Below are positions 14,317-58,402 of a stretch of 64,000 nt of DNA, in pieces; position 1 is the stretch's first letter; each line of letters opens with the position of its first letter. The DNA is taken from IMG/VR virus record IMGVR_UViG_3300048930_000242, positions 62,001 through 126,000 of that record; one strand, given 5' to 3'. The stretch comes from a virus. Below the pieces are notes generated by a model that ran no database searches, was not told the origin of the DNA, and was given only the letters and a program-made list of their open reading frames with translations. A program made the position numbers and the translations under genes.

Positions 14317-14798
14317 ATATCAGACAGATTCAAGCGGTTGTCAATAACAACTTCCTTCGTGGAAATCGGTTCAAGGTAATGACCGGTCTAGGCAACTTCG
14401 TGGACGAGAGATGCTGCTCGGTCTCTTGGCCGAACATCACCTATTCGACATTCAACTGGAAGAACGCCGGACCGAACATCAAGGTGCCATATGAGCCGGT
14501 CTTCGATGAGGTCCGACTAGAGTTCTATTGCGACCATAACGGCGTCGTGCCTTCGGCGATCCGCAAATGGAACAGAGATATTCTGGATGGATCTCTTCAG
14601 TTCAATTACTTCTCGGAGTATGTCCGTGACGTCTCTATCATGGAATACAACACATCAAACCAGATGGTCCATAAGAAGATTCTCTGTAACGCCTATCCAA
14701 TCACAATCGAGCCAGTTCAACTTGGTTTTGAACTGAATAACCAAGTAGAGAAAATCGCAATGCTTCTGTCTTATGAGTACTCAAAGGATGAGGGATGA
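14313..14798 (+). CDS. Tail tube-like protein (T4 gp19 family)
   Basis: 161 residues, the length of T4 gp19 (163). The C-terminal region VPYEPVFDEVRLEFYCD, DISIMEYN-like YVRDVSIMEYNTSN and ILCNAYPITIEPVQLGFELNNQVEKIAMLLSYEY is typical of the gp19 tube family. Because this gene sits with gp4 and assembly genes and not next to a sheath gene, it may be a specialised tube paralogue (for instance a hub or tube-end ring) and not the main tube protein. Confidence 0.75.
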   Translation: MNIRQIQAVVNNNFLRGNRFKVMTGLGNFVDERCCSVSWPNITYSTFNWKNAGPNIKVPYEPVFDEVRLEFYCDHNGVVPSAIRKWNRDILDGSLQFNYFSEYVRDVSIMEYNTSNQMVHKKILCNAYPITIEPVQLGFELNNQVEKIAMLLSYEYSKDEG

Positions 14799-15283
14799 CA
14801 AACCTGGTTCAAACTCCGGAATTCGTGAAAGTTCTTGATGGATGGCTAGAGAAGAACGATCAGAAGTTCGCCTCGAGGATCAAATCATGGAGCGGGCAAA
14901 TTCCGCCGCAGTTCAAGACTTGCACCACTCCGCTCTACCGTGGGATGACAGTCGATGAGTCTTTCATGGCAGCGGCCGATAAAGGAGTGACATTCAAGAC
15001 ATTCACTTCTTGGTCAATTAAGCCGGAAGTGGCGAAGAAATTTGTGAATGACCCGGCCTATAGATTGTCAAATGGCGGCGGAACGAAAATCAAAATTCTG
15101 ATAACGAAGAAGCTAAATGCATCCGATATTGTGTTCAACATTTTCAATTATGTTCTTTTCATGGGGTGGATGCTCCCATCATTAGGAATGGACGAACTAT
15201 CATTGGATTCTGCAACAAAAGAACAAGAAGTACTAGTGAATAAGGGCGTTGTTATCAAAATGCCCGATATCAAAATTATCTGA
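14795..15283 (+). CDS. Small ADP-ribosyltransferase of the R-S-E class
   Basis: 162 residues. The three catalytic elements of arginine-type ADP-ribosyltransferases appear in order: LYRG with Arg49, FTSWS with Ser72 on the expected strand, and KEQEVLV with the E-x-E pair Glu143/Glu145. These enzymes transfer ADP-ribose from NAD to proteins or RNA (T4 Alt, ModA and ModB are the phage examples). This protein is far shorter than Alt and close to the bare catalytic core. It is in a late virion operon, overlapping the tube-like gene by 4 bp, so it may be packaged or injected; that is inference. Base composition becomes more A/T-rich in its second half. Confidence 0.75.
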   Translation: MTNLVQTPEFVKVLDGWLEKNDQKFASRIKSWSGQIPPQFKTCTTPLYRGMTVDESFMAAADKGVTFKTFTSWSIKPEVAKKFVNDPAYRLSNGGGTKIKILITKKLNASDIVFNIFNYVLFMGWMLPSLGMDELSLDSATKEQEVLVNKGVVIKMPDIKII

Positions 15284-15304: not shown

Positions 15305-16045
15305 ATGGGTCTTCCAAATATCCAAGCGGCGTATCTCACCAAGCAAATCGTGCTTCCGATCTCTAACAAGAAGATCAAGATCCGTCCGTTCTTGGCCAAA
15401 GAAGAGAAACTGATGCTGATGGTGAAAGAATCTCAGAATCCGGACGAGATCGCCGACATTATCTGCCAGGTGATGGACGCCATCTGTCTCGGAGAGATCA
15501 AGACCAAGGAACTTCCCGCGCCGGACACCGAGGCGCTTTTCTTGGCGGCAAGATGCCTCTCAAAAGGAGAGACGTCCGAAGTGACCTATATCTGTCGGGC
15601 GAAGGTCCCAGACCTGAATAAGCCCGGAGAGATGAGAACATGCTCCACTCCGGTGCCTATGGAGATCCGACTCGACGACGTGAAGGTGGTGATTCCAGAA
15701 GGACATACCAAGACGGTGAAGATCACCGGCACTCCTTTCGCTATTAACTTCAGGTATCCTACTCTGGCGGATTCAGCCGGAGTAGAGAAGAATCAAGATC
15801 CTTTCGAGAACGTAGTGAAACTGATCGAGTCGGTTTCTAATCTGGAGACCGGTGTGGTCTATGATGACTTCACCAAAGAAGAACTGAATGAATTCTTGGA
15901 CAGCCTTCCATTTGGATTCATGGCCGAAGCAGCAAATCAGTTTCTCTCCACGATGCCGACTCTATCCAAGAAGATCAAGTTCAAATGCCCATCCTGCGGA
16001 CACGAAGAAGACATCACGGTTAGAGGGTTGACCAATTTTTTCTGA
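15305..16045 (+). CDS. 26: gp26-type baseplate/tail assembly protein (0-frame product)
   Basis: 246 residues. The N-terminus (YLTKQIVLPISNKKIKIRPFLAKEEKLMLMVKES) and the C-terminal zinc-ribbon-like CPSCGHEEDITVRGLTNFF match the T4 gp26 family (T4_baseplate, PF12322 type). It also has a central Cys pair region YICRAK..TCSTP. The stop codon is immediately preceded by a slippery T-TTT-TTC heptamer and followed by a stem-loop, so a share of ribosomes is predicted to continue into the 16036-16254 frame. The gene lies directly before the tape-measure gene, exactly where tail chaperone genes of other phages lie. RBS is GGAGAA 7 bp before the ATG. Confidence 0.85.
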   Translation: MGLPNIQAAYLTKQIVLPISNKKIKIRPFLAKEEKLMLMVKESQNPDEIADIICQVMDAICLGEIKTKELPAPDTEALFLAARCLSKGETSEVTYICRAKVPDLNKPGEMRTCSTPVPMEIRLDDVKVVIPEGHTKTVKITGTPFAINFRYPTLADSAGVEKNQDPFENVVKLIESVSNLETGVVYDDFTKEELNEFLDSLPFGFMAEAANQFLSTMPTLSKKIKFKCPSCGHEEDITVRGLTNFF

Positions 16046-16075
16046 TCAGCGCCTTTAACGACTCGATAAGGGCGC
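16036..16075 (+). promoter_or_regulatory. Programmed -1 ribosomal frameshift signal
   Basis: Slippery heptamer T-TTT-TTC at 16036-16042 in the correct frame, then a 6-nt spacer, then an 8-bp stem: GCGCCTTT (16049-16056) pairing with AAGGGCGC (16068-16075) with one G-U pair around an 11-nt loop. All three elements of a -1 frameshift site are present, and the 0-frame stop TGA (16043-16045) follows the heptamer directly. Confidence 0.8.
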
Positions 16076-16254
16076 ATTATACCTTGAACTTCTTTTTGGT
16101 CAAGGAATATGGTATCACACCAGAAGAGTCCGAGAATATGCTTCCGTTCGAAAGAGAAATCTATATGGGACAGGCGATGAAGGACTTGGAAGCAAGAAGA
16201 AGAGCAGCAATCAATGCCGCCCGTGGCGGACAGTGGACTGAGTTAGGAGCGTAA
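16036..16254 (+). CDS. -1 frameshift extension of the gp26-type tail chaperone
   Basis: This frame has no good start of its own but is open across the 0-frame stop. After a -1 slip at 16036-16042 translation would add 70 residues beginning LISAFNDSIRAHYTLN, passing VKEYGITPEESENMLPFERE and ending QWTELGA, for a product near 316 residues. The extension is hydrophilic and helix-prone, like the T part of lambda gpG-T. The stop at 16252 lies 4 bp before the tape-measure start. Sequence support is strong; production of the fusion is inference. Confidence 0.8.
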   Translation, partial: FFLISAFNDSIRAHYTLNFFLVKEYGITPEESENMLPFEREIYMGQAMKDLEARRRAAINAARGGQWTELGA

Positions 16255-16258
16255 CTAA

Positions 16259-18748
16259 GTGGCCGAACAACAGCAAAACGACAAGTTCCGTAAAGAGGTC
16301 TTGGCTTATCTCAAGAAGCAAGATTACGGTTCTCAGCGCCTTGGCCCGTTCAAGTCGAATCAACAAGGCAATGAAGAACTTGCCAAAATCCTTATGGACC
16401 TTCAGGACAAGTCTTTTGAAGAGGACACTGAATCACTTGGAGTCCTGGGCAAGGAACTGTCCGAGAAACTCAAGGAGCTGAATGAATCCGCTCTGATGGG
16501 CGATGCCGCCTCTCAGGCCATTTTGCTGGATCAATTGACTGCCTACGAGAATATGATTCCTCTTCTTGAGGAAGGGAATGCCGCTCAGAAGCACGCTAAA
16601 GAGATGCTTGGAATGATGTATAAGGATTCCAAGGCGGCGATGAAACAGAACTCGAAGTTCTATAATCGACTTGTCGAGGGCGCGAAGTCCTTGATGCCGG
16701 CTGCATCCGGCTTCTTGACCGCAATGACCGCCAAGTCTCCAATTGCGGGTGCGATGGTGAACTTCGCCTTGGAGAAGTTCCAGGCCCGTCAGAGACAGAA
16801 AGAAGACGCCAAGGAGCAGGCGGTCAAGTCCTTGATGAAGACTTTTGGAGCGATGGGAACGGCGTCCAGTCCGACCTCTCCAATGCGTGTGCCAAGCGCT
16901 CCATCTACAAGTTACCAGGACCACACCAACGACCCTGAGTTCCAAGCCGGCATCGAGGAAGGCATCATTGAGGAACTTCAGAAGCTGAACACTCAGCAGA
17001 TGGAGGAGCTAAAGACCAAGCTGACCGAACTGTTCGATGTGAACGAAGAGGAACTCGACTCCATTGAGCGGATCGCTCAGTTCTTGGCTCCGATCGCCTC
17101 CGAAGAGGCCACAATGGAAGCCGAGCGCCAAATGGACGAGCAGACCAGAATCCTCCAGTCGATTGCGAAGAACACCGGAGAGGCCGCCGATCCTAAGAAG
17201 AAAGATGGCGCCGGTGGAATGTTGGCCAATCTGCTCGGCTTGGCCGACATGAAGGCCGCGTTTGACATGCTGAAGGGCGCCGGCCTGATGATGTTTGGGT
17301 ATGCCAAGAATCTGGCCAAGCTTTTCTCGAAGTGGGCTATCCCAATCACTCTGGCCGTGGGCATTGGCAAAGGCCTTTACGGTGGCATCAAGAAATGGAT
17401 GGACGGAGGCACATTTGCCGAGGCACTGGCGACCGGTCTTACCGATGCCGGAGATCTCCTCCTGGACATCTTCACATTTGGCTACGCCAACGAAGTGAAG
17501 AAATGGTTCTCCGAGAAAGGCACCGACATTCTCGATCCAATCTTCGAGGCCTATGATTCGATCACTCTCTTCATCTCGGATTCGATGACCACGATTGTCG
17601 AGACATTCCAGAAGCTGAAGAAGTCGATCGGAGGAATGATCACCGACGCCTCGGACATTATTGATGCCATCTCCGAAGGAGGTTTGGACGCCGGTTTCGC
17701 GAAGGCTCAGGAAGTTTACAATCGCCGAAACAATATTCCGCAAGTGAATGTTGCCGGAAACGCCGGAGTGGATTCTCTTGGGAGAGATTCGGCATTTGGG
17801 AAAGCCCACCAAGAGAGGATGGATCGGACCGGCAATCCAAAGTTGATGTCCGCTCGGAAGCGTCGTGAAATGAAGGCTCTTGAAGAGCAGAACCAGGCGG
17901 CCGCGCCTGCCTCGACTTCTCCAGCCAGAGTTCCATCTATAAAGGCGACGACTGCCGAAAAACAGCAAGCCATGTTTGACATCATGGAAGCATCCGAGAA
18001 AGTTGGGGTGAATCCAGAATACATGATGAAAATAACTAAGCAGGAATCTGGATTTGATCCGAAAGCGCAAAATCCAAAATCTTCGGCCGGAGGCCTATTC
18101 CAATTTTTGGATGCTACTTGGCTTGAAATGATGGACAAGAATGCGGCAAAGCATGGAATTGACACGAGTCAAATGTCCAGAGATCAAATTCTGGCCATGA
18201 AGAAAGATTCAAAAATCAACTCGTTAATGGGAGCCGAATTCGCCAAGCAGAATGAAAAGACCATTGGGTCTAGTGATATCGGAGATCTCTACCTTGCTCA
18301 TTTTGCCGGAGCTGGGGCAGCTAAGAAATTGATTTCTGGCGCCGATCCAAGAGAGGCGTTTGGGAAAAATTACAATGCAGTGATGCAGGCGAATCCGTAT
18401 ATCCAAGGACTTGATTCGACTGGAATCAGAAATTGGGCTGCCAATAAAATGGACGGCCCATCTTTGACCGCTCCCGTTATTGGGGCACCTGCGGCCGAAC
18501 TAGCAACCAACGTGACTCCAAAGGCGGAGGCCAATGTAAATGCTCTGGAAAGCGCGTCCACGAAGGTCAAGGCCGACGAGACGATTTCCAGAGCGAAGGT
18601 CGAGTCGAAGAACTCTCAGGTCAACATCCAGAACAACAAGATCGCTGGTGCGTCAAGCGGCGGTGGTCCTCCATCCGGAGGAACCGGTGCGAACTCTCCT
18701 CGTCACTTGGACCCAACAATCGAGAAGTTCTCTCCGTTGTTGACTTAA
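16259..18748 (+). CDS. Tape-measure protein fused to a lytic transglycosylase domain
   Basis: 829 residues with a GTG start at 16259, 4 bp after the frameshifted chaperone frame ends. Residues 1-300 are largely coiled and helical, with a hydrophobic segment at 150-170. Residues about 320-470 hold hydrophobic helices (MLKGAGLMMFGYAKNLAKLF, AIPITLAVGIGKGLYGGI, TGLTDAGDLLLDIFTFGY). Residues 580-690 form an SLT-type domain with ITKQESGFDPKAQNPKSSAGGLFQF, catalytic Glu near 596, and a later YLAHFAGAGAAKKL motif. T4 gp29 has no such enzyme. The domain would cut peptidoglycan during DNA entry. The last 120 residues are Ala/Lys- and Gly-rich. Confidence 0.82.
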   Translation: MAEQQQNDKFRKEVLAYLKKQDYGSQRLGPFKSNQQGNEELAKILMDLQDKSFEEDTESLGVLGKELSEKLKELNESALMGDAASQAILLDQLTAYENMIPLLEEGNAAQKHAKEMLGMMYKDSKAAMKQNSKFYNRLVEGAKSLMPAASGFLTAMTAKSPIAGAMVNFALEKFQARQRQKEDAKEQAVKSLMKTFGAMGTASSPTSPMRVPSAPSTSYQDHTNDPEFQAGIEEGIIEELQKLNTQQMEELKTKLTELFDVNEEELDSIERIAQFLAPIASEEATMEAERQMDEQTRILQSIAKNTGEAADPKKKDGAGGMLANLLGLADMKAAFDMLKGAGLMMFGYAKNLAKLFSKWAIPITLAVGIGKGLYGGIKKWMDGGTFAEALATGLTDAGDLLLDIFTFGYANEVKKWFSEKGTDILDPIFEAYDSITLFISDSMTTIVETFQKLKKSIGGMITDASDIIDAISEGGLDAGFAKAQEVYNRRNNIPQVNVAGNAGVDSLGRDSAFGKAHQERMDRTGNPKLMSARKRREMKALEEQNQAAAPASTSPARVPSIKATTAEKQQAMFDIMEASEKVGVNPEYMMKITKQESGFDPKAQNPKSSAGGLFQFLDATWLEMMDKNAAKHGIDTSQMSRDQILAMKKDSKINSLMGAEFAKQNEKTIGSSDIGDLYLAHFAGAGAAKKLISGADPREAFGKNYNAVMQANPYIQGLDSTGIRNWAANKMDGPSLTAPVIGAPAAELATNVTPKAEANVNALESASTKVKADETISRAKVESKNSQVNIQNNKIAGASSGGGPPSGGTGANSPRHLDPTIEKFSPLLT

Positions 18749-40581: not shown

Positions 40582-40783
40582 TTTGATTTCTCTCTTTCAG
40601 AAGTTGTCCGTGTAGTTGGGCAATCACCGCCGCATACACATCCAGGCTTTGCTTTGGCGGCCCTACTTGGAAATAGTGGAGCCACCAATGTCTGGAGTTT
40701 GGTTGGCGGATTCGAATCCCGACAACCTCTTCGTATTTGTCGTCGAGCATATACTCGACTTCGTACTCATTTGGCTTCGTCAT
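40556..40783 (-). CDS. Small protein, unknown
   Basis: 75 residues. Acidic N-terminus, RHWWLHYFQVG in the middle, helical C-terminus. It overlaps the RNA ligase gene stop by 17 bp, so it is translated with it. No family recognised. Confidence 0.55.
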   Translation of the reverse strand: MTKPNEYEVEYMLDDKYEEVVGIRIRQPNSRHWWLHYFQVGPPKQSLDVYAAVIAQLHGQLLKERNQNEQMRTNS

Positions 40784-41909
40784 AAACCTTGTTCATCACC
40801 TTGAAAGAGCGGACCTTTCCGTTCTCGTCGACGTATTGGCAGACCACGCCTTCGAACATCTCGAAGTTATACTCCGGAGCCAAGAGCTCTTCTTCCTTTG
40901 TCGCAGACAGCGCCTCGGCCAGAGTCTTCGAAGTCTCGATCTTCCGAAGGAACTCTGCGGTGATCACAGTGTTGCACGAGAGGTATGGCACAGTTCGGAT
41001 GTCTTCGATGTCCAGAAGAGACTCGAACGGAAGGTACTCAAGAGTCCGAAGGTCGAGCAGCGAGAACCAAGAGACACTCTTCTCTCGTTGACTCCAAGGA
41101 TTGTACTTGCCGGACTGGATGCCTGGTCCATGGACTTCGCCGCGGATGGCCAGTGATTTGCCGGTCTTGACGCAGTAGTCCTCGAGCATCTTGAAGATGT
41201 TCGAAGACTTCACGGCATCCCAGTACCGATTGGTCTCACCGACTCCAGGAATCTTCAGCTCGTTGTTCCTGGCGCAGTAGCCAAGGATTGGTCGATCTTC
41301 AGTTCCGCCTTCGGCAAGGACATATCCACGATGGCCAGGAAGGACGCAGTAGACGGTCAATGATGTACCGTCGATCTTTTCGGTGACCGTACACACTTGT
41401 CCAAGAACCTGGGCTTCTCCAAGGTTCTGGTAGCGGTCCTCGTCGGTCGGCATCAAGCAAAACGGAAGCGGACCCTTGACGGTGAGGTCGGTCGGAAGAG
41501 GCGCTTCATACTTGGTGACACCGAAAGACGCTGAGACTTCGGTCCCAGCTTTCGGGTATTTGGGGTCCGTGCTCCACCAATGATCTGTGAACAGAGCATA
41601 GCAAGATGGATCGGAAGAAACTTTGTTGAACGGAACAACCAGGCCAAAACTCCACTCTCCACGGATGTTCTTGGCCTTCACTCGCCGGGTGGTCGAGGAG
41701 ACAAACGAAAGGTACTCTTGAGCCCACTCTCGGTCAGCCGGAAGAGACGCGTCAGGATGGACCAAGAAGCATTTCGAGCCGACCTGGTACACGCCACGGC
41801 CAACGATCGCCTCGTAGCCAGCGACTCGGACGATGTCCAGGCGGTCAGCATTCGGATGCGGTCGGACGGACTCGACACACTCAAAGGTCATCAACTTGTT
41901 ACTCATCAT
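40767..41909 (-). CDS. RNA ligase with N-terminal OB-like domain (Rnl5/DraRnl-like)
   Basis: 380 residues. The nucleotidyltransferase motifs are visible: EKIDGTS with the adenylated Lys178, RGEVHG (motif III), FEGVVC (motif IV) and SFKVMN (motif V). Residues 1-130 (FECVESVRPHPNADRLDIVRVAGYEAIVG) form the tRNA-binding-protein-like OB module that precedes the catalytic part in the Deinococcus DraRnl type. It seals RNA breaks using ATP. Together with the cREC-like protein and the tRNA cluster it points to repair of RNA cut by host defence; that is inference. Start may be the second ATG (41906). Confidence 0.85.
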   Translation of the reverse strand: MMSNKLMTFECVESVRPHPNADRLDIVRVAGYEAIVGRGVYQVGSKCFLVHPDASLPADREWAQEYLSFVSSTTRRVKAKNIRGEWSFGLVVPFNKVSSDPSCYALFTDHWWSTDPKYPKAGTEVSASFGVTKYEAPLPTDLTVKGPLPFCLMPTDEDRYQNLGEAQVLGQVCTVTEKIDGTSLTVYCVLPGHRGYVLAEGGTEDRPILGYCARNNELKIPGVGETNRYWDAVKSSNIFKMLEDYCVKTGKSLAIRGEVHGPGIQSGKYNPWSQREKSVSWFSLLDLRTLEYLPFESLLDIEDIRTVPYLSCNTVITAEFLRKIETSKTLAEALSATKEEELLAPEYNFEMFEGVVCQYVDENGKVRSFKVMNKVYDEAK

Positions 41910-43481: not shown

Positions 43482-44927
43482 TCAGTCGAAACTAGCCTCA
43501 AGGTCGCGGTACATTTTCACTCGAGCTCGAATCGACTCTACATTCTGGTCAATCGCGTCTTCCAACGAATGCATCGCGCCGGCCACTCCAACAGGAAGAC
43601 GCTCGACCAGATTGTTCTTGCGGAACGCAACCGGCTCTCCTTTCTCGGAGAACACGGTGGTCACAATACCGGCCTTCGACTTCTTGCTGGTCTGGCCAAT
43701 AGGACTCTTGAAAACCGGATCCCAATGGTCGGAATAGATGTTGTTGGTTTTGGCCGAGCATTTCATGGCAAACGAAAAAGTGTCTCGGTCGAGCTTCTGA
43801 AGAAGTGCTCCGCCCATACCAAAGGCGATATTATCGGCAGAGAAACCATTATCATGGATCTCTTGAAGAATCTCTCCAATACTAACAGGATTAACTCCAT
43901 CTCCTTGGATAATTCGGACACGGTTCAAAACCTTGAACCCTTTTGTGTTAATTGTGTAACCAAATTTCTTTGCCAAAATCCAAAGACACTGAATGACAGT
44001 CTCCTTTGGATCTCCTGAATCTGGCCGAATCACCAGAGTTCCAGGCGCAGCGAGCACCTCGTCTTTCAGCACTCCGCCCCAGATGTTCTCACAGGCGTTG
44101 AAGATGTCGTAAGAGTCCGAGACAACAGCAAAGAGTCCTCCGCCGAACTGCTTGATCATGTTCCGATAGGCGTCGACCTCGTTGTCCTTGCCCCAGGAGG
44201 TGATCGTCGAATGCTCGGCTGCCGGGATCGAGAATCCGACCATCTCGGAATCATAGACCTCTTCGGCGAAAGCCAGAGCCTCCATCGTGTCGGTACCCAT
44301 GAAGCCAACGCAAAGGTGAGCGAAGCCACCAAGTTCGGCCGACTCATGAGAACTGACGCCTCGAGCTCCGAAGTCATGGAGCATGAATGGGAGCTTAGAC
44401 TTGTCGTCGCAAGTTAGGTCCATATAGTACTCGATCATCTCATAGCAGTAGTTCGAGATCGAGGCCACAGTGGACGGATACCAGATGCACCGCTGGATCA
44501 GCGTCTCGAGGAACCCAGGCAGCCAGAAGAAGTCCGGATCGGTGTTCACGACGGTGAGGATCGGAACGCCTGGGTTGACGATCGTGCCTTCCTTGACCGT
44601 ATTGATCTTGACGGCGCCAAGGAGACGACCACCATACCGCTCGACCAGAGTGTTCCAACCTTCCTCGTTGAACGGCTCTCCGGCGGCTGTTACAATCCGC
44701 TTCGCCTGTTCAACATGAGCGGAAGTCACTCGAAGGCTCTCCAGGAGAGCCAGAAGGTAACGCTGTCCGACGCAGACTACTTTGGTGATTGCATCTTCTC
44801 CACTGAGCGTCTTGATCGAACGAGCCTCAATGTACTCGTAGACATAGTTGGTGTCCGGCGGATACTGGAGATAGTGACTGTGCTTATAGGCATCGGTCAT
44901 GAGAATTGGGTTATTGCTGCGGTTCAT
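43482..44927 (-). CDS. nadV: Nicotinamide phosphoribosyltransferase
   Basis: 481 residues, normal length for NAMPT (about 490). Recognised by NPILMTDAYKHSHYLQYP at the start, LHDFGARG with Asp185, the catalytic His239 in AAEHSTI, and VIRPDSGDP near 297. It makes NMN from nicotinamide and PRPP. The next gene makes NAD from NMN, so the pair is a complete two-step salvage route, known from phages such as KVP40 and called NARP2 in anti-phage-defence work. Confidence 0.93.
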   Translation of the reverse strand: MNRSNNPILMTDAYKHSHYLQYPPDTNYVYEYIEARSIKTLSGEDAITKVVCVGQRYLLALLESLRVTSAHVEQAKRIVTAAGEPFNEEGWNTLVERYGGRLLGAVKINTVKEGTIVNPGVPILTVVNTDPDFFWLPGFLETLIQRCIWYPSTVASISNYCYEMIEYYMDLTCDDKSKLPFMLHDFGARGVSSHESAELGGFAHLCVGFMGTDTMEALAFAEEVYDSEMVGFSIPAAEHSTITSWGKDNEVDAYRNMIKQFGGGLFAVVSDSYDIFNACENIWGGVLKDEVLAAPGTLVIRPDSGDPKETVIQCLWILAKKFGYTINTKGFKVLNRVRIIQGDGVNPVSIGEILQEIHDNGFSADNIAFGMGGALLQKLDRDTFSFAMKCSAKTNNIYSDHWDPVFKSPIGQTSKKSKAGIVTTVFSEKGEPVAFRKNNLVERLPVGVAGAMHSLEDAIDQNVESIRARVKMYRDLEASFD

Positions 44928-47987: not shown

Positions 47988-47995
47988 TATCTATT
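47988..47995 (-). promoter_or_regulatory. Late promoter, AATAGATA
   Basis: Minus strand AATAGATA, 29 bp before the 47959 start, just after the topoisomerase stop. Confidence 0.6.
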
Positions 47996-49344
47996 CAGGC
48001 TATCTTTGCGAGATCGGCGGCGAACTCTTTCTCCGGCTTCAAACCAGAAATCCGCTTGATCTCCTTCTCGAGCTCCTTGATTTTCTTCTCGGTCTCTTGG
48101 AGGACTTCGTTGGTGAACTGGTAGACCGGAAGGTTCACCAGTCGATCCATGTTGGACTCGATTTCCTCGGTCTGGAATCCTTCACTTCGGAGAGTTCCAC
48201 CGAATTGATCACGAAGTTTAGCCTTTGTGGTCCGCAGATTGAAGTAATCATGCGGACTAAGTCCGACAGCCTCTACCAAACGGCGCTTCATTTTCAAGAA
48301 AATGAAGTCTTGATTAAGTGCCGCTAGTTCCCTTGCAAATCGCTTTGGGTATACGGTCAGACGGTACTGAACGAAATCCCATACAAGTGAACCTATGGTC
48401 GGGTAGGTATTGACCTTGCCGTCCGGACTGATGACCACGATATTCTCGGTCATCTTGACTACAAGCTTCAGATCGGCCAGAATCTGGCCGTCGTCCTTCT
48501 TCTCCAGAGAGGACGGAACCTTCAAGGAGAAGCGGAAGCGGCCGCCGGAGGTCTCGTCGGTGTAGTCATTGATGACACCCTTCTCGATCAACTTCTCGAG
48601 CTTCTCGATGTAGCCTTCACGGTCATAGCCGTATGGCAGTTCAGTCACAATGATCCGCTTCTTGTCTCGCTCGATCTTGCCGGAGACAATCCATGAAGTC
48701 CGGCCGTTCTCTTCAAACGGTTTCACCGATCCGAAGAACTGCGGAAACGAAGGCTTGATATGAGTCGCCCTGGCCTTCTCTTCCGAGAGTCCGCCAAGGA
48801 TCTCCAAGACGAAGTCCTTGATCGAGGAGATGGACCGTGGGAAGATGTCGGTGGCGAAGCCGACGGCCATGCCCGACGCGCCATTGATCGCCACGACAGG
48901 AAGGATCGGGAGGAAGAAAGATGGCTCGTTGCCGTCCGGAGACTGGCGACAGTCCTCGGAGTCCAAGAAGATCGGCAATGCGGCCGGATTGACTCGGACC
49001 GAAGTGTATCGAGCGGCTGCTGGGACCTGGACGATCCTGGAGCCGAAGTTGCCTTCACCCTCTAGAAGCGGAAGGTTGTTGGCCCATGGAGCGGCCATCA
49101 AAGATGCGGCGTCTTGGAGTGAGGAATCGCCGTGGTGGTAGTCGGCCTCGACAATCACCTGACCGCAGAGAGCAGCGGTCTTGGTGAACTTCTTGGCGTG
49201 GTTCGTTGCGGTCCAGAAGATCTTCCGTTGGGAAGGCTTCATCCCATCAATCAATGATGGGATGGCTCGTGAGAAAACCACATACCGGGCGTAATCCCGG
49301 TGCGGTCCATTGATGAGATCAGTGATTGTGGTCAAACGAACCAT
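47995..49344 (-). CDS. 52: DNA topoisomerase II medium subunit gp52
   Basis: 449 residues (T4 gp52 has 442). The breakage-reunion features are present: IPSLIDGMKPSQRKIFW, YHHGDSSLQDAASLMA, and the catalytic Tyr113 in AAARYTSVRV. It cuts and rejoins both DNA strands together with gp39, whose gene lies upstream at 50398-52272. A short membrane-protein frame overlaps its start by 13 bp. Confidence 0.93.
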   Translation of the reverse strand: MVRLTTITDLINGPHRDYARYVVFSRAIPSLIDGMKPSQRKIFWTATNHAKKFTKTAALCGQVIVEADYHHGDSSLQDAASLMAAPWANNLPLLEGEGNFGSRIVQVPAAARYTSVRVNPAALPIFLDSEDCRQSPDGNEPSFFLPILPVVAINGASGMAVGFATDIFPRSISSIKDFVLEILGGLSEEKARATHIKPSFPQFFGSVKPFEENGRTSWIVSGKIERDKKRIIVTELPYGYDREGYIEKLEKLIEKGVINDYTDETSGGRFRFSLKVPSSLEKKDDGQILADLKLVVKMTENIVVISPDGKVNTYPTIGSLVWDFVQYRLTVYPKRFARELAALNQDFIFLKMKRRLVEAVGLSPHDYFNLRTTKAKLRDQFGGTLRSEGFQTEEIESNMDRLVNLPVYQFTNEVLQETEKKIKELEKEIKRISGLKPEKEFAADLAKIA

Positions 49345-50397: not shown

Positions 50398-52272
50398 TTA
50401 GGACAACCAAACTTTCCGAGCGTCGGCCGAAGGCCCAAAGGCGATCATCAAGGACTTCTCGGCATCTTCATCTTTCTCGATCTTGGTCCAGCGCGGATTG
50501 CGGATCATCTCGGCGTAATCGGTCTCATTCATCGAACCAAGACCTTTCAGGTAGGTCGCCTTGGCCTTGGCCGGAATCGCCTTCAGAGCCTCCTCATCTT
50601 GGCCGTAGATGAAGCCAACCTTGGTTCCGTCGGTCCATCGGTAAGAAGGCGGCTCCACAGCCCAGAGGTGACCACCGGCAACCAGGTTAGGCCAGAGGCG
50701 CATGAAGAGGTTCACCAGAAGAGCCTTGATCGAGGCACCGTCATGATCGGCGTCGGCCATGATTGCGATTCGTCCGTACTCCAGGTCCTTTGGATCGACT
50801 TCCTCTCCAGGGCGGATCCCGAGCACGGCGGCGATCTCCTTAACCTCCTTGTTCTCGAAGATCTCGTTCAGAGTCATCCCGTGAGCGTTGATGATCTTTC
50901 CGCGGAGCGGAAAGCCACCATGCCGCTGAGGATCACGGACGTTCGAGAGCTGGCCGATTGCCGAGTCGCCTTCTGTCAAGAAGAGGATTCGCTGAGCCGG
51001 ATCAGGATGGTTGGCCGGAAGATGCTTGGCCACTCGGAGTTTCTTCATGTCCTTGCCAAGGCGCTTCACCTCGGCTCGCTCCTTCGCTTCCTTCTTCAGG
51101 ATGAAGGCCTCGACGATCTGGTCGCAGATATGAGACGAGCCGATCATCTTCTTGGCAACAGCCTCTCCGTCGAAGTCCTTGATCAGATGAGTCCAAGAAC
51201 CCGGCGGAGAGCTCAGGTACTCCTTGGTCTGTGACCGGAACTGAGGATCGACCACACCATCGAGCATCACAACGAAACAAGTCTTCGCTCGGATGTCGTT
51301 CGGCTTGATGTCGACCTTGTGTTTCTTGGACAGCTTGGCGGCGACCACATCGATGATCTTGTTGCGGACGTACTCCAGATGAGTGCCGCCTTCGTAGGTG
51401 TCAATTCCGTTCACGAAGCTCAGGTTGATGTTGTCATCCGATGAGAGGATCGCCAGGCGAAGGTTCTCGTACTCGAAGACCAGTGGGTCTGGACCGATTC
51501 CACAAAGAGGACTCGAAGAGATCGCTCCGGCGTACCGCTTGAAGGTTCGGCTCTGGACAACCAGGCCGTCCAACTTGAACGTGATGGCTGGGAAGCATGC
51601 CGCCAGGTCGAAGATTCGACGCCGAATGATCCGGACCGCGGTCTCCACGCTGTCAAGGTCAAAGATCGAACGATCCGGCATATATGAGATCTTGGTGTAT
51701 GGGTCGCCTTTCTTCGGAGACAAGGCGCGCTTCCTCTGGATTCCACGACAAGACTTGAGGCTGTAGAAAAGCTCGCCGTCCTCGATCTCTGCCTGGAAGT
51801 CCTCGGACAAGATGTTGACCAATGTAACGCCAAGGCCGTGAGTTCCGATAGAGACCGCACGGTCGGCATCGAAGTTGCTGCCGGCTCGGAGGTGCTGAAG
51901 AGCCAGGTCGGCCATCAGATGCTCTGAGTCCTTGGCCTTCCGCAATGGAATGCCGCGGCCATTGTCCCGAACGGTGAACCGGTAGTTGCCGAAGTCCTTC
52001 TCGGTGTTTACCCAGATGGTAAAGGTTCCGCCTTTGGCCGACTTATGGCCAAGTCGATAGGACTCATCGATGGCATTCGAGACAACCTCGTCGAAGAGCT
52101 TCACCAGCGCCGGCGAGTACGAAACCTCTTCCCACTTCAGCTCCGGAAGGTTCTTGCTCTCGTCCAAGACCCAACAGGTCTTCACCTGCGGCGCAACTGC
52201 GCCGACATACATTGAACTACGTAACCTGACATGTTCAATATCAGTTAATGCTACAATGTTATTGTCGTTCAT
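50398..52272 (-). CDS. 39: DNA topoisomerase II large subunit gp39
   Basis: 624 residues, uninterrupted, unlike T4 where genes 39 and 60 are split. GHKL ATPase motifs: EVVSNAIDESYRL, RDNGRGIPLRK and IGTHGLGVTLVNILS. TOPRIM motifs: ILFLTEGDSAIGQL and RIAIMADADHDGASIKALL. It supplies ATP-driven strand passage with gp52. Its start overlaps the end of the homing endonuclease gene by 14 bp. Confidence 0.94.
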   Translation of the reverse strand: MNDNNIVALTDIEHVRLRSSMYVGAVAPQVKTCWVLDESKNLPELKWEEVSYSPALVKLFDEVVSNAIDESYRLGHKSAKGGTFTIWVNTEKDFGNYRFTVRDNGRGIPLRKAKDSEHLMADLALQHLRAGSNFDADRAVSIGTHGLGVTLVNILSEDFQAEIEDGELFYSLKSCRGIQRKRALSPKKGDPYTKISYMPDRSIFDLDSVETAVRIIRRRIFDLAACFPAITFKLDGLVVQSRTFKRYAGAISSSPLCGIGPDPLVFEYENLRLAILSSDDNINLSFVNGIDTYEGGTHLEYVRNKIIDVVAAKLSKKHKVDIKPNDIRAKTCFVVMLDGVVDPQFRSQTKEYLSSPPGSWTHLIKDFDGEAVAKKMIGSSHICDQIVEAFILKKEAKERAEVKRLGKDMKKLRVAKHLPANHPDPAQRILFLTEGDSAIGQLSNVRDPQRHGGFPLRGKIINAHGMTLNEIFENKEVKEIAAVLGIRPGEEVDPKDLEYGRIAIMADADHDGASIKALLVNLFMRLWPNLVAGGHLWAVEPPSYRWTDGTKVGFIYGQDEEALKAIPAKAKATYLKGLGSMNETDYAEMIRNPRWTKIEKDEDAEKSLMIAFGPSADARKVWLS

Positions 52273-58002: not shown

Positions 58003-58402
58003 TCTTGCACCGTATCGGCGGTGCCACCCGGATAGACTTGGTCAGCCAACGTCTATCAGATCAGCCTCAAGCAGCCATAGCTACCGGAGCAAAGTACTCG
58101 TCATTTGCGGTTACTTTAGGTTTGGACTCTTTAGGACGGACTTGCCGACTTAAGCAAGCTACCCGATCCACGCGAGCTACCATCTCGGATCGCCAACAGG
58201 TTAGTATGACATCAGTCGAAGCCAGGGCAGGCCCATCAAAAGCTCTTTAGGTGGCTCCGGGTCTTGATACGGAGCACTTACATCCCCTTTCGTACCTAAA
58301 GGGCTTATGGTGGACCTGGCGGGAATCGAACCCGCGTGTTGCTGCCTTTTCGCTGTCAGTTTACGATCATTCAAGCCCTAATCGCGCGAACGACTTCGGG
58401 AA
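58003..58402 (-). ncRNA. ssrA: Circularly permuted tmRNA (ssrA)
   Basis: Read on the minus strand. The acceptor piece comes first: T arm GCGGG-TTCGATT-CCCGC, then CAGGTCC, A and CCA (58308-58318). After a 73-nt spacer the coding piece starts at 58234 with GGGCCTG, which pairs with CAGGTCC over 7 bp (one G-U), followed by GGCTTCGACTG. The resume codon GCA at 58108 begins a 13-codon tag ANDEYFAPVAMAA and stop (58108-58067), preceded by AGTAACC. The spacer has its own stems (CTTTAGGT/ACCTAAAG, GCTCCG/CGGAGC) that would hold the ends for processing, and 3' hairpins TAGAC/GTCTA and GCACCG/CGGTGC close the coding piece. It would rescue stalled ribosomes and tag proteins for degradation. Outer ends are approximate. 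Confidence 0.87.

What the first reader, a model, noticed from the sequence alone, without database searches (positions are those of the whole stretch)
15305..16254. Complete -1 frameshift cassette in a gp26-type tail assembly gene
A T-TTT-TTC heptamer lies in frame directly before the stop, followed after 6 nt by an 8-bp stem-loop, and the -1 frame is open for 70 more codons, ending 4 bp before the tape-measure start. This is the gpG/gpG-T arrangement of lambda-like tails placed in a T4-type gp26 gene. It implies that T4-superfamily gp26 can act as the tail chaperone with a frameshifted long form, joining two tail-assembly systems usually discussed separately.
Basis: partly seen in the sequence, partly recalled or inferred. 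Interest (0 to 1): 0.85.

Follow-up and report, generated by a model that had tools for sequence, protein, structure and literature searches.

The report
Frameshifted tail-assembly chaperone gene (gp26/gp51)
This T4-like phage appears to make the short and long forms of its tail-assembly chaperone from one gene by having some ribosomes slip back one base near the gene's end; the signal is real and shared by almost every T4-superfamily lineage sampled, but the basic idea was already published for T4-like phages in 2022.

Summary
A strong 9-bp stem follows after 6 nt, and a 70-codon -1 frame ends at 16254, 4 nt before the next gene (GTG 16259). The -1 frame encodes a homologue of cyanophage 'gp51' (phrog_634, E 7e-11). 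Of 117 related loci read, 114 carry in-frame T_TTT_TTN here and all 117 have an open -1 frame. At 60% clustering 58 of 60 carry the heptamer; codon use predicts about 21, and other Phe-Phe sites in the same loci give 6%. In most lineages the first ATG of the -1 frame lies inside the conserved domain, so a separate gp51 gene is untenable. T4 is the instructive exception: gp26 matches the short form, gp51 matches short form plus C-terminal domain in one ORF, and gp26 retains Phe-Phe coded as non-slippery TTC-TTT. Best reading: programmed -1 frameshifting makes TAC-N (246 aa) and TAC-NC (316 aa). The identification of TAC genes in T4-like phages is prior art (Vladimirov et al. 2022), so this is a well-supported new member of a known kind. 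Ackermannviridae, with the -1 frame but no canonical heptamer, remain unexplained.

The parts
15305..16045 (+). gp26-type gene: short form of the tail assembly chaperone (TAC-N), 246 aa, stop TGA 16043-45
   Evidence: PF12322 T4_baseplate E 1.8e-53; phrog_150 E 7e-52; tblastn matches in >1,400 phage records, nearly all over at least 80% of the query; AF2 model pLDDT 92
16036..16042 (+). slippery heptamer T_TTT_TTC, in frame, immediately 5' of the stop
   Evidence: direct reading; same site in 114 of 117 related loci; codon-choice test
16043..16048 (+). 6-nt spacer, including the 0-frame stop TGA
16049..16075 (+). candidate stimulatory stem-loop, 9 bp (16049-16057 with 16067-16075)
   Evidence: -13.4 kcal/mol, z -4.33 vs dinucleotide shuffles; z -4.13 vs synonymous recodings
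16042..16254 (+). -1 frame extension (TAC-C, gp51 domain): 70 codons CTG 16042 to GCG 16251, stop TAA 16252-54; fusion product 316 aa
   Evidence: phrog_634 'baseplate hub assembly catalyst' E 7e-11 and 5e-11; conserved in 47 aligned relatives; no ATG before +95 nt
16023..16027 (+). GAGGG, a weak Shine-Dalgarno-like element 8 nt upstream of the heptamer (possible stimulator; not above synonymous expectation in this phage)
   Evidence: anti-SD energy -6.3 kcal/mol but z -0.2 here; enriched across lineages, mean z -0.85, P 3e-5
16259..18748 (+). downstream gene, 829 aa with a transglycosylase (SLT) domain; candidate tape-measure protein / chaperone client
   Evidence: PF01464 SLT E 3.5e-9; genes at the same place in Vibrio phage D481 and Ochrobactrum phage OC match tape-measure PHROGs; identity as tape measure inferred by position

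Best explanation
[quoted passage not shown] Most ribosomes read 15305-16045 and make the short form (TAC-N, gp26, 246 aa). A minority pause at the 9-bp stem-loop, and the two tRNA-Phe on TTT TTC slip back one base on T_TTT_TTC. These ribosomes bypass the stop and add the 70-residue helical gp51 domain, giving a 316-aa long form (TAC-NC). By analogy with lambda gpG/gpGT, the short form would coat the tape-measure protein and the long form would in addition recruit the first tube subunits to start tail-tube polymerisation. Shown here: the signal, its conservation across lineages, the homology of the -1 product to gp51, and that T4 carries the same two products as separate genes. Inferred: that slippage happens, its efficiency, and the chaperone and client roles.
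For: Site and frame as described. The -1 product is gp51: phrog_634 E 7e-11, and all 47 aligned relatives match that family. Heptamer in 114/117 loci, -1 frame open in 117/117, including Kyanoviridae, Pootjesviridae, Methylophilales, Desulfovibrio, Pseudomonas and Vibrio phages and several Straboviridae outside the T4 group. Codon-choice test 58 vs 20.9 expected. Stimulators: stem z -4.3 here; 19/58 lineages have stems beyond synonymous expectation (z < -1.64), Wilcoxon P 0.01 over all, and SD-like elements P 3e-5. The first -1-frame ATG lies >30 nt past the stop in 40/56 lineages, and Desulfovibrio phage 7757 has no start codon there at all. T4 control: gp51 spans phrog_150 nearly end to end plus phrog_634, gp26 only phrog_150 up to position 235; T4-type gp26 genes that keep Phe-Phe code it TTC TTT and have no gp51 frame after them. 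HK97 tail assembly chaperone 2ob9 is the first PDB hit for the gp26 model, though weak (E 0.29, prob 0.63). PF12322 covers both T4 genes.
Against: No expression data. 13 of 56 lineages have an ATG within 12 nt of the stop, so reinitiation could contribute there. Downstream stems are not conserved in position or strength: 39 of 58 lineages show none beyond synonymous expectation. Ackermannviridae have the -1 frame without the heptamer. PDB similarity to a known TAC is below significance. The T-domain model is only moderate (pLDDT 72).
Confidence: 0.93

Rival explanations
1. gp51 is a separate gene expressed by translational coupling or reinitiation after the gp26 stop, as most cyanophage annotations state.
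For: Annotated so in P-SSM2, S-PM2, RHph_N34, Vibrio D481 and others; 13 of 56 lineages have an ATG within 12 nt of the stop, some as TGATG/TAATG overlaps.
Against: In the window the first ATG is 95 nt and the first TTG 41 nt past the stop, inside the conserved domain; 40 of 56 lineages have no ATG until >30 nt past it; Desulfovibrio 7757 has none. The T_TTT_TTN codon choice and the residues straight after it are conserved. T4 gp51 has the two parts in one ORF.
Confidence: 0.04
2. Transcriptional slippage on the T run makes mRNAs with a base fewer or more, which fuse the frames without ribosomal slippage.
For: Some relatives have runs of 7-9 T (L004, L025).
Against: The run here is 6 T, short for RNA polymerase slippage (general knowledge); most lineages use T_TTT_TTC (40 of 58), which keeps the run at six; lineage-specific RNA stems and SD-like elements fit translational stimulation.
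Confidence: 0.02
3. An assembly indel split one in-frame gene.
For: A homopolymer is a common place for sequencing errors; T4 gp51 is a single ORF.
Against: The same frame break occurs in 117 loci from many separate records, at the same codon, with the same heptamer in 114.
Confidence: 0.005

Closest known systems
TAC genes of T4-like phages, gp26 (TAC-N) and gp51 (TAC-NC): Vladimirov, Gautam & Davidson 2022, Virology 566:9-15 (not held; known here only through citing papers PMC10885494 and PMC12846349)
   Same: Same short-plus-long chaperone scheme in T4-like phages. PMC12846349 cites it for polyT slippery signals in the TAC-N genes of T4-like phages; PMC10885494 for the short-gene-plus-fused-long-gene arrangement.
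   Different: In T4 itself two separate genes, one short and one long fusion; here one gene with a -1 frameshift. The citing passages do not name gp26/gp51; that link is my reading of T4's gene set. The 60-cluster codon test, the Aeh1 gp51 and the Ackermannviridae exception may or may not be in that paper.
Lambda gpG/gpGT tail assembly frameshift (Levin 1993; Xu 2004, 2013, 2014; reviewed in PMC5009743)
   Same: Short protein plus -1-frameshifted long form, encoded just before the tape-measure gene (lambda map).
   Different: No sequence relation shown; U_UUU_UUC instead of lambda's G_GGA_AAG (latter from general knowledge); contractile-tail phage; T4 gp26 is listed as a hub assembly chaperone.
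HK97 tail assembly chaperone (PDB 2ob9)
   Same: First PDB match of the gp26 model
   Different: Weak (E 0.29, TM 0.19/0.37), partial alignment of 83 columns
Vandenendeviridae/Andersonviridae TAC frameshift, GTTTTT motif (PMC12846349)
   Same: Poly-T -1 frameshift at the end of TAC-N in contractile-tail phages
   Different: Other families and a different slippery context; not compared by sequence here

Membership tests
Phage tail assembly chaperone (TAC-N/TAC-NC) locus | Short ORF followed by an overlapping or abutting ORF in another frame, fusable by frameshift | tested here: met
[quoted passage not shown]
   T_TTT_TTC; T_TTT_TTN in 58 of 60 lineages
Phage tail assembly chaperone (TAC-N/TAC-NC) locus | Lies directly upstream of the tape-measure gene | tested here: inconclusive
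   Two relatives' genes at this place match tape-measure PHROGs; the window's own 829-aa protein matches transglycosylase/tail families only
Phage tail assembly chaperone (TAC-N/TAC-NC) locus | TAC fold | tested here: inconclusive
   2ob9 first but not significant
Phage tail assembly chaperone (TAC-N/TAC-NC) locus | Both products made in a fixed ratio, required for tails, absent from virions | not testable with these tools
   needs proteomics and genetics; T4 gp51 is required but absent from the particle (PMC3004832)
T4 gp26 / T4_baseplate (PF12322) | Match above the curated cut-off over most of the model | tested here: met
   181.9 bits vs cut-off 24.5, positions 7-218 of 219
T4-superfamily gp51 (phrog_634) | Significant match of the -1 frame product | tested here: met
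   E 7e-11

The most novel reading that the evidence does not exclude
Frameshift-coded gp26/gp51 is the general, probably ancestral state of the T4 superfamily. Textbook T4 is a derived case in which a fused long copy replaced the frameshift and the short gene then lost its slippery codons, while Ackermannviridae keep the -1 frame but use an unrecognised, non-canonical way into it.
Probability: 0.4. Interest if true: 0.55.

Novelty: new member of a known kind. Interest (0 to 1): 0.38.

Why it matters
It supports with sequence evidence that T4-superfamily phages follow the same short/long chaperone logic as lambda-like tails, from which a 2016 review still excepted T4. It explains why cyanophage gp51 looked 'truncated' and why gp51 looked missing from Aeh1. 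It also means that many GenBank records annotate gp51 with a false start or not at all. It gives a clean test system (T_TTT_TTC plus stem) and a natural contrast with T4, where two genes supply the same two products.

Tried and rejected
DNA-level search of phage records with 4.8 kb of the locus found nothing, so no close named relative was found in that collection. Rfam gave no RNA family for the stem (hits far below gathering scores). PDB sequence searches with gp26 and T-domain profiles found no real relative. The tree of short and long forms did not resolve the order of the T4 duplication: long branches meet and the root is arbitrary. A structure conserved across lineages was considered and rejected: stems are lineage-specific. 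The related-locus search with the Vibrio K351 protein found nothing. The fusion protein itself was not folded because the tool takes no -1 shift; the two parts were folded apart.

Full report
What is there. The window is bases 62001-126000 of a 153,340-base virus record. The ORF at 15305-16045 is a full-length gp26-type protein (PF12322 E 1.8e-53, phrog_150 E 7e-52). It ends ACC AAT TTT TTC TGA, so T_TTT_TTC (16036-16042) is in the X_XXY_YYZ phase directly before the stop. The -1 frame continues for 70 codons, CTG 16042 to GCG 16251, stop 16252-54, and the next gene starts GTG 16259.

What the -1 frame encodes. It matches phrog_634, the 'baseplate hub assembly catalyst' gp51 of cyanophages (E 7e-11), and weakly the C-terminus of phrog_150. 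In Prochlorococcus phage P-SSM2 gp51 is annotated as a separate 57-codon gene in the -1 frame just after gp26.

Relatives. Loci were gathered from IMG/VR and from annotated phages. Of 117 loci read (the window itself and the copy of it fetched from its own record included), 114 have an in-frame T_TTT_TTN at the end of gp26 and all 117 have an open -1 frame encoding the same domain. They span Kyanoviridae, Pootjesviridae, a Methylophilales phage, Desulfovibrio phage 7757, Pseudomonas phage Milchi, Vibrio phage D481 and Straboviridae outside the T4 group (Chrysonvirus, Aeh1, Aeromonas 65, Cronobacter S13). The three without the heptamer are two Ackermannviridae and Vibrio phage K351. After clustering at 60% identity, 58 of 60 lineages have it. 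Given each gene's own codon use 20.9 are expected, and 200,000 simulations never exceeded 38; elsewhere in the same loci only 8 of 135 Phe-Phe dipeptides have this context. So the codons, not just the Phe-Phe residues, look selected. The simulation treats lineages as independent, which related sequences are not entirely.

Stimulators. Nineteen of 58 lineages have a downstream structure beyond synonymous expectation (z < -1.64; Wilcoxon P 0.01 over all). An upstream Shine-Dalgarno-like element is stronger than synonymous expectation on average (mean z -0.85, P 3e-5). The window appears to rely on its stem; its own upstream GAGGG is not exceptional.

Why not a separate gp51 gene. In the window the first ATG in the -1 frame is 95 nt past the stop and inside the conserved domain. 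In 40 of 56 lineages it is more than 30 nt past it, and Desulfovibrio phage 7757 has no start codon in the frame. The aligned -1 products are conserved from the slip site on: Phe2 and Glu39 are invariant and Phe1, Phe19, Pro37 and Tyr43 nearly so among 47 sequences. In 13 lineages an ATG near the stop leaves room for reinitiation as well.

T4 as a natural control. T4 gp26 (208 aa) matches phrog_150 only to position 235. T4 gp51 (249 aa) matches phrog_150 to position 280 of 282 and phrog_634 over its residues 147-246, so it is the long form in one ORF. T4-type gp26 genes that keep the Phe-Phe code it TTC TTT, never T_TTT_TTN, and the -1 frame after them carries no gp51 domain. Where the long form has its own gene, the slippery site is absent. 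The tree does not say when the duplication happened. Sullivan et al. 2010 (PMC3037559) noted that cyanophage and marine vibriophage gp51 lack the first ~200 residues and that Aeh1 has none; here Aeh1 has the domain in the -1 frame behind T_TTT_TTC (L118).

How it most likely works. Lambda's short gpG binds the tape measure, and the rarer long gpGT also recruits the tube subunit (PMC5009743). T4 gp26 and gp51 are listed as hub assembly chaperones, and gp51 is required but absent from the particle (PMC3004832). The same division of labour is inferred here. The AF2 model of gp26 is confident (pLDDT 92); its first PDB match is the HK97 tail assembly chaperone 2ob9, but only at E 0.29, so that is a hint. 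The -1 domain is predicted as three helices (pLDDT 72). The gene that follows has a transglycosylase domain; at this place two relatives carry proteins matching tape-measure families.

What is known. [quoted passage not shown] PMC10885494 summarises it as one short gene plus one long fused gene in some T4-like phages, and PMC12846349 cites it for polyT frameshift signals in TAC-N genes of T4-like phages. The central claim of the finding is therefore prior art in outline; a 2016 review still excepted T4. I score this as a new member of a known kind.

What remains open. Ackermannviridae and Vibrio K351 have a homologous -1 frame but no canonical heptamer. In Ackermannviridae the junction is a conserved GA[AG]ATTTTCATT-TAA, and in K351 a TAATG overlap allows reinitiation. 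How the Ackermannviridae enter the -1 frame is unexplained. No expression evidence of any kind was available.

Noticed in passing
window 58067-58368 (-): A permuted (two-piece type) tmRNA gene in the phage, Rfam RF04321 88 bits; ARAGORN gives the tag ANDEYFAPVAMAA. It sits among about 20 tRNA genes. Permuted tmRNAs are typical of alphaproteobacteria and some other groups (general knowledge), which hints at the host.
   Followed up: partly
window 43482-44927 (-): Nicotinamide phosphoribosyltransferase (NAPRTase E 6.7e-52, NAMPT_N 2.8e-17): NAD salvage by the phage, possibly counter to NAD-depleting defence.
   Followed up: no
window 14795-15283 (+): Small ORF between the tail tube gene and gp26 with a weak ADP-ribosyltransferase match (PF01129 E 0.0014, below cut-off; phrog_27460 E 2e-22), absent at this place in C48C1.
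   Followed up: no
L027, L031, L132-L146 (Ackermannviridae): gp26 is followed by an open -1 frame with a gp51-like domain but no X_XXY_YYZ heptamer; the junction GA[AG]ATTTTCATT-TAA is conserved and the region is left unannotated in the two named records.
   Followed up: partly
L033, L034, L118, L119 and other public records: gp51 is missing or annotated with a late start inside the domain (for example ACG-2014a, 31 codons; none in S-PRM1, Aeh1, Cronobacter S13): a recurrent annotation error.
   Followed up: yes
window 40767-41909, 47995-49344, 50398-52272 (-): Phage RNA ligase and both type II topoisomerase subunits, with A and B as separate genes.
   Followed up: no
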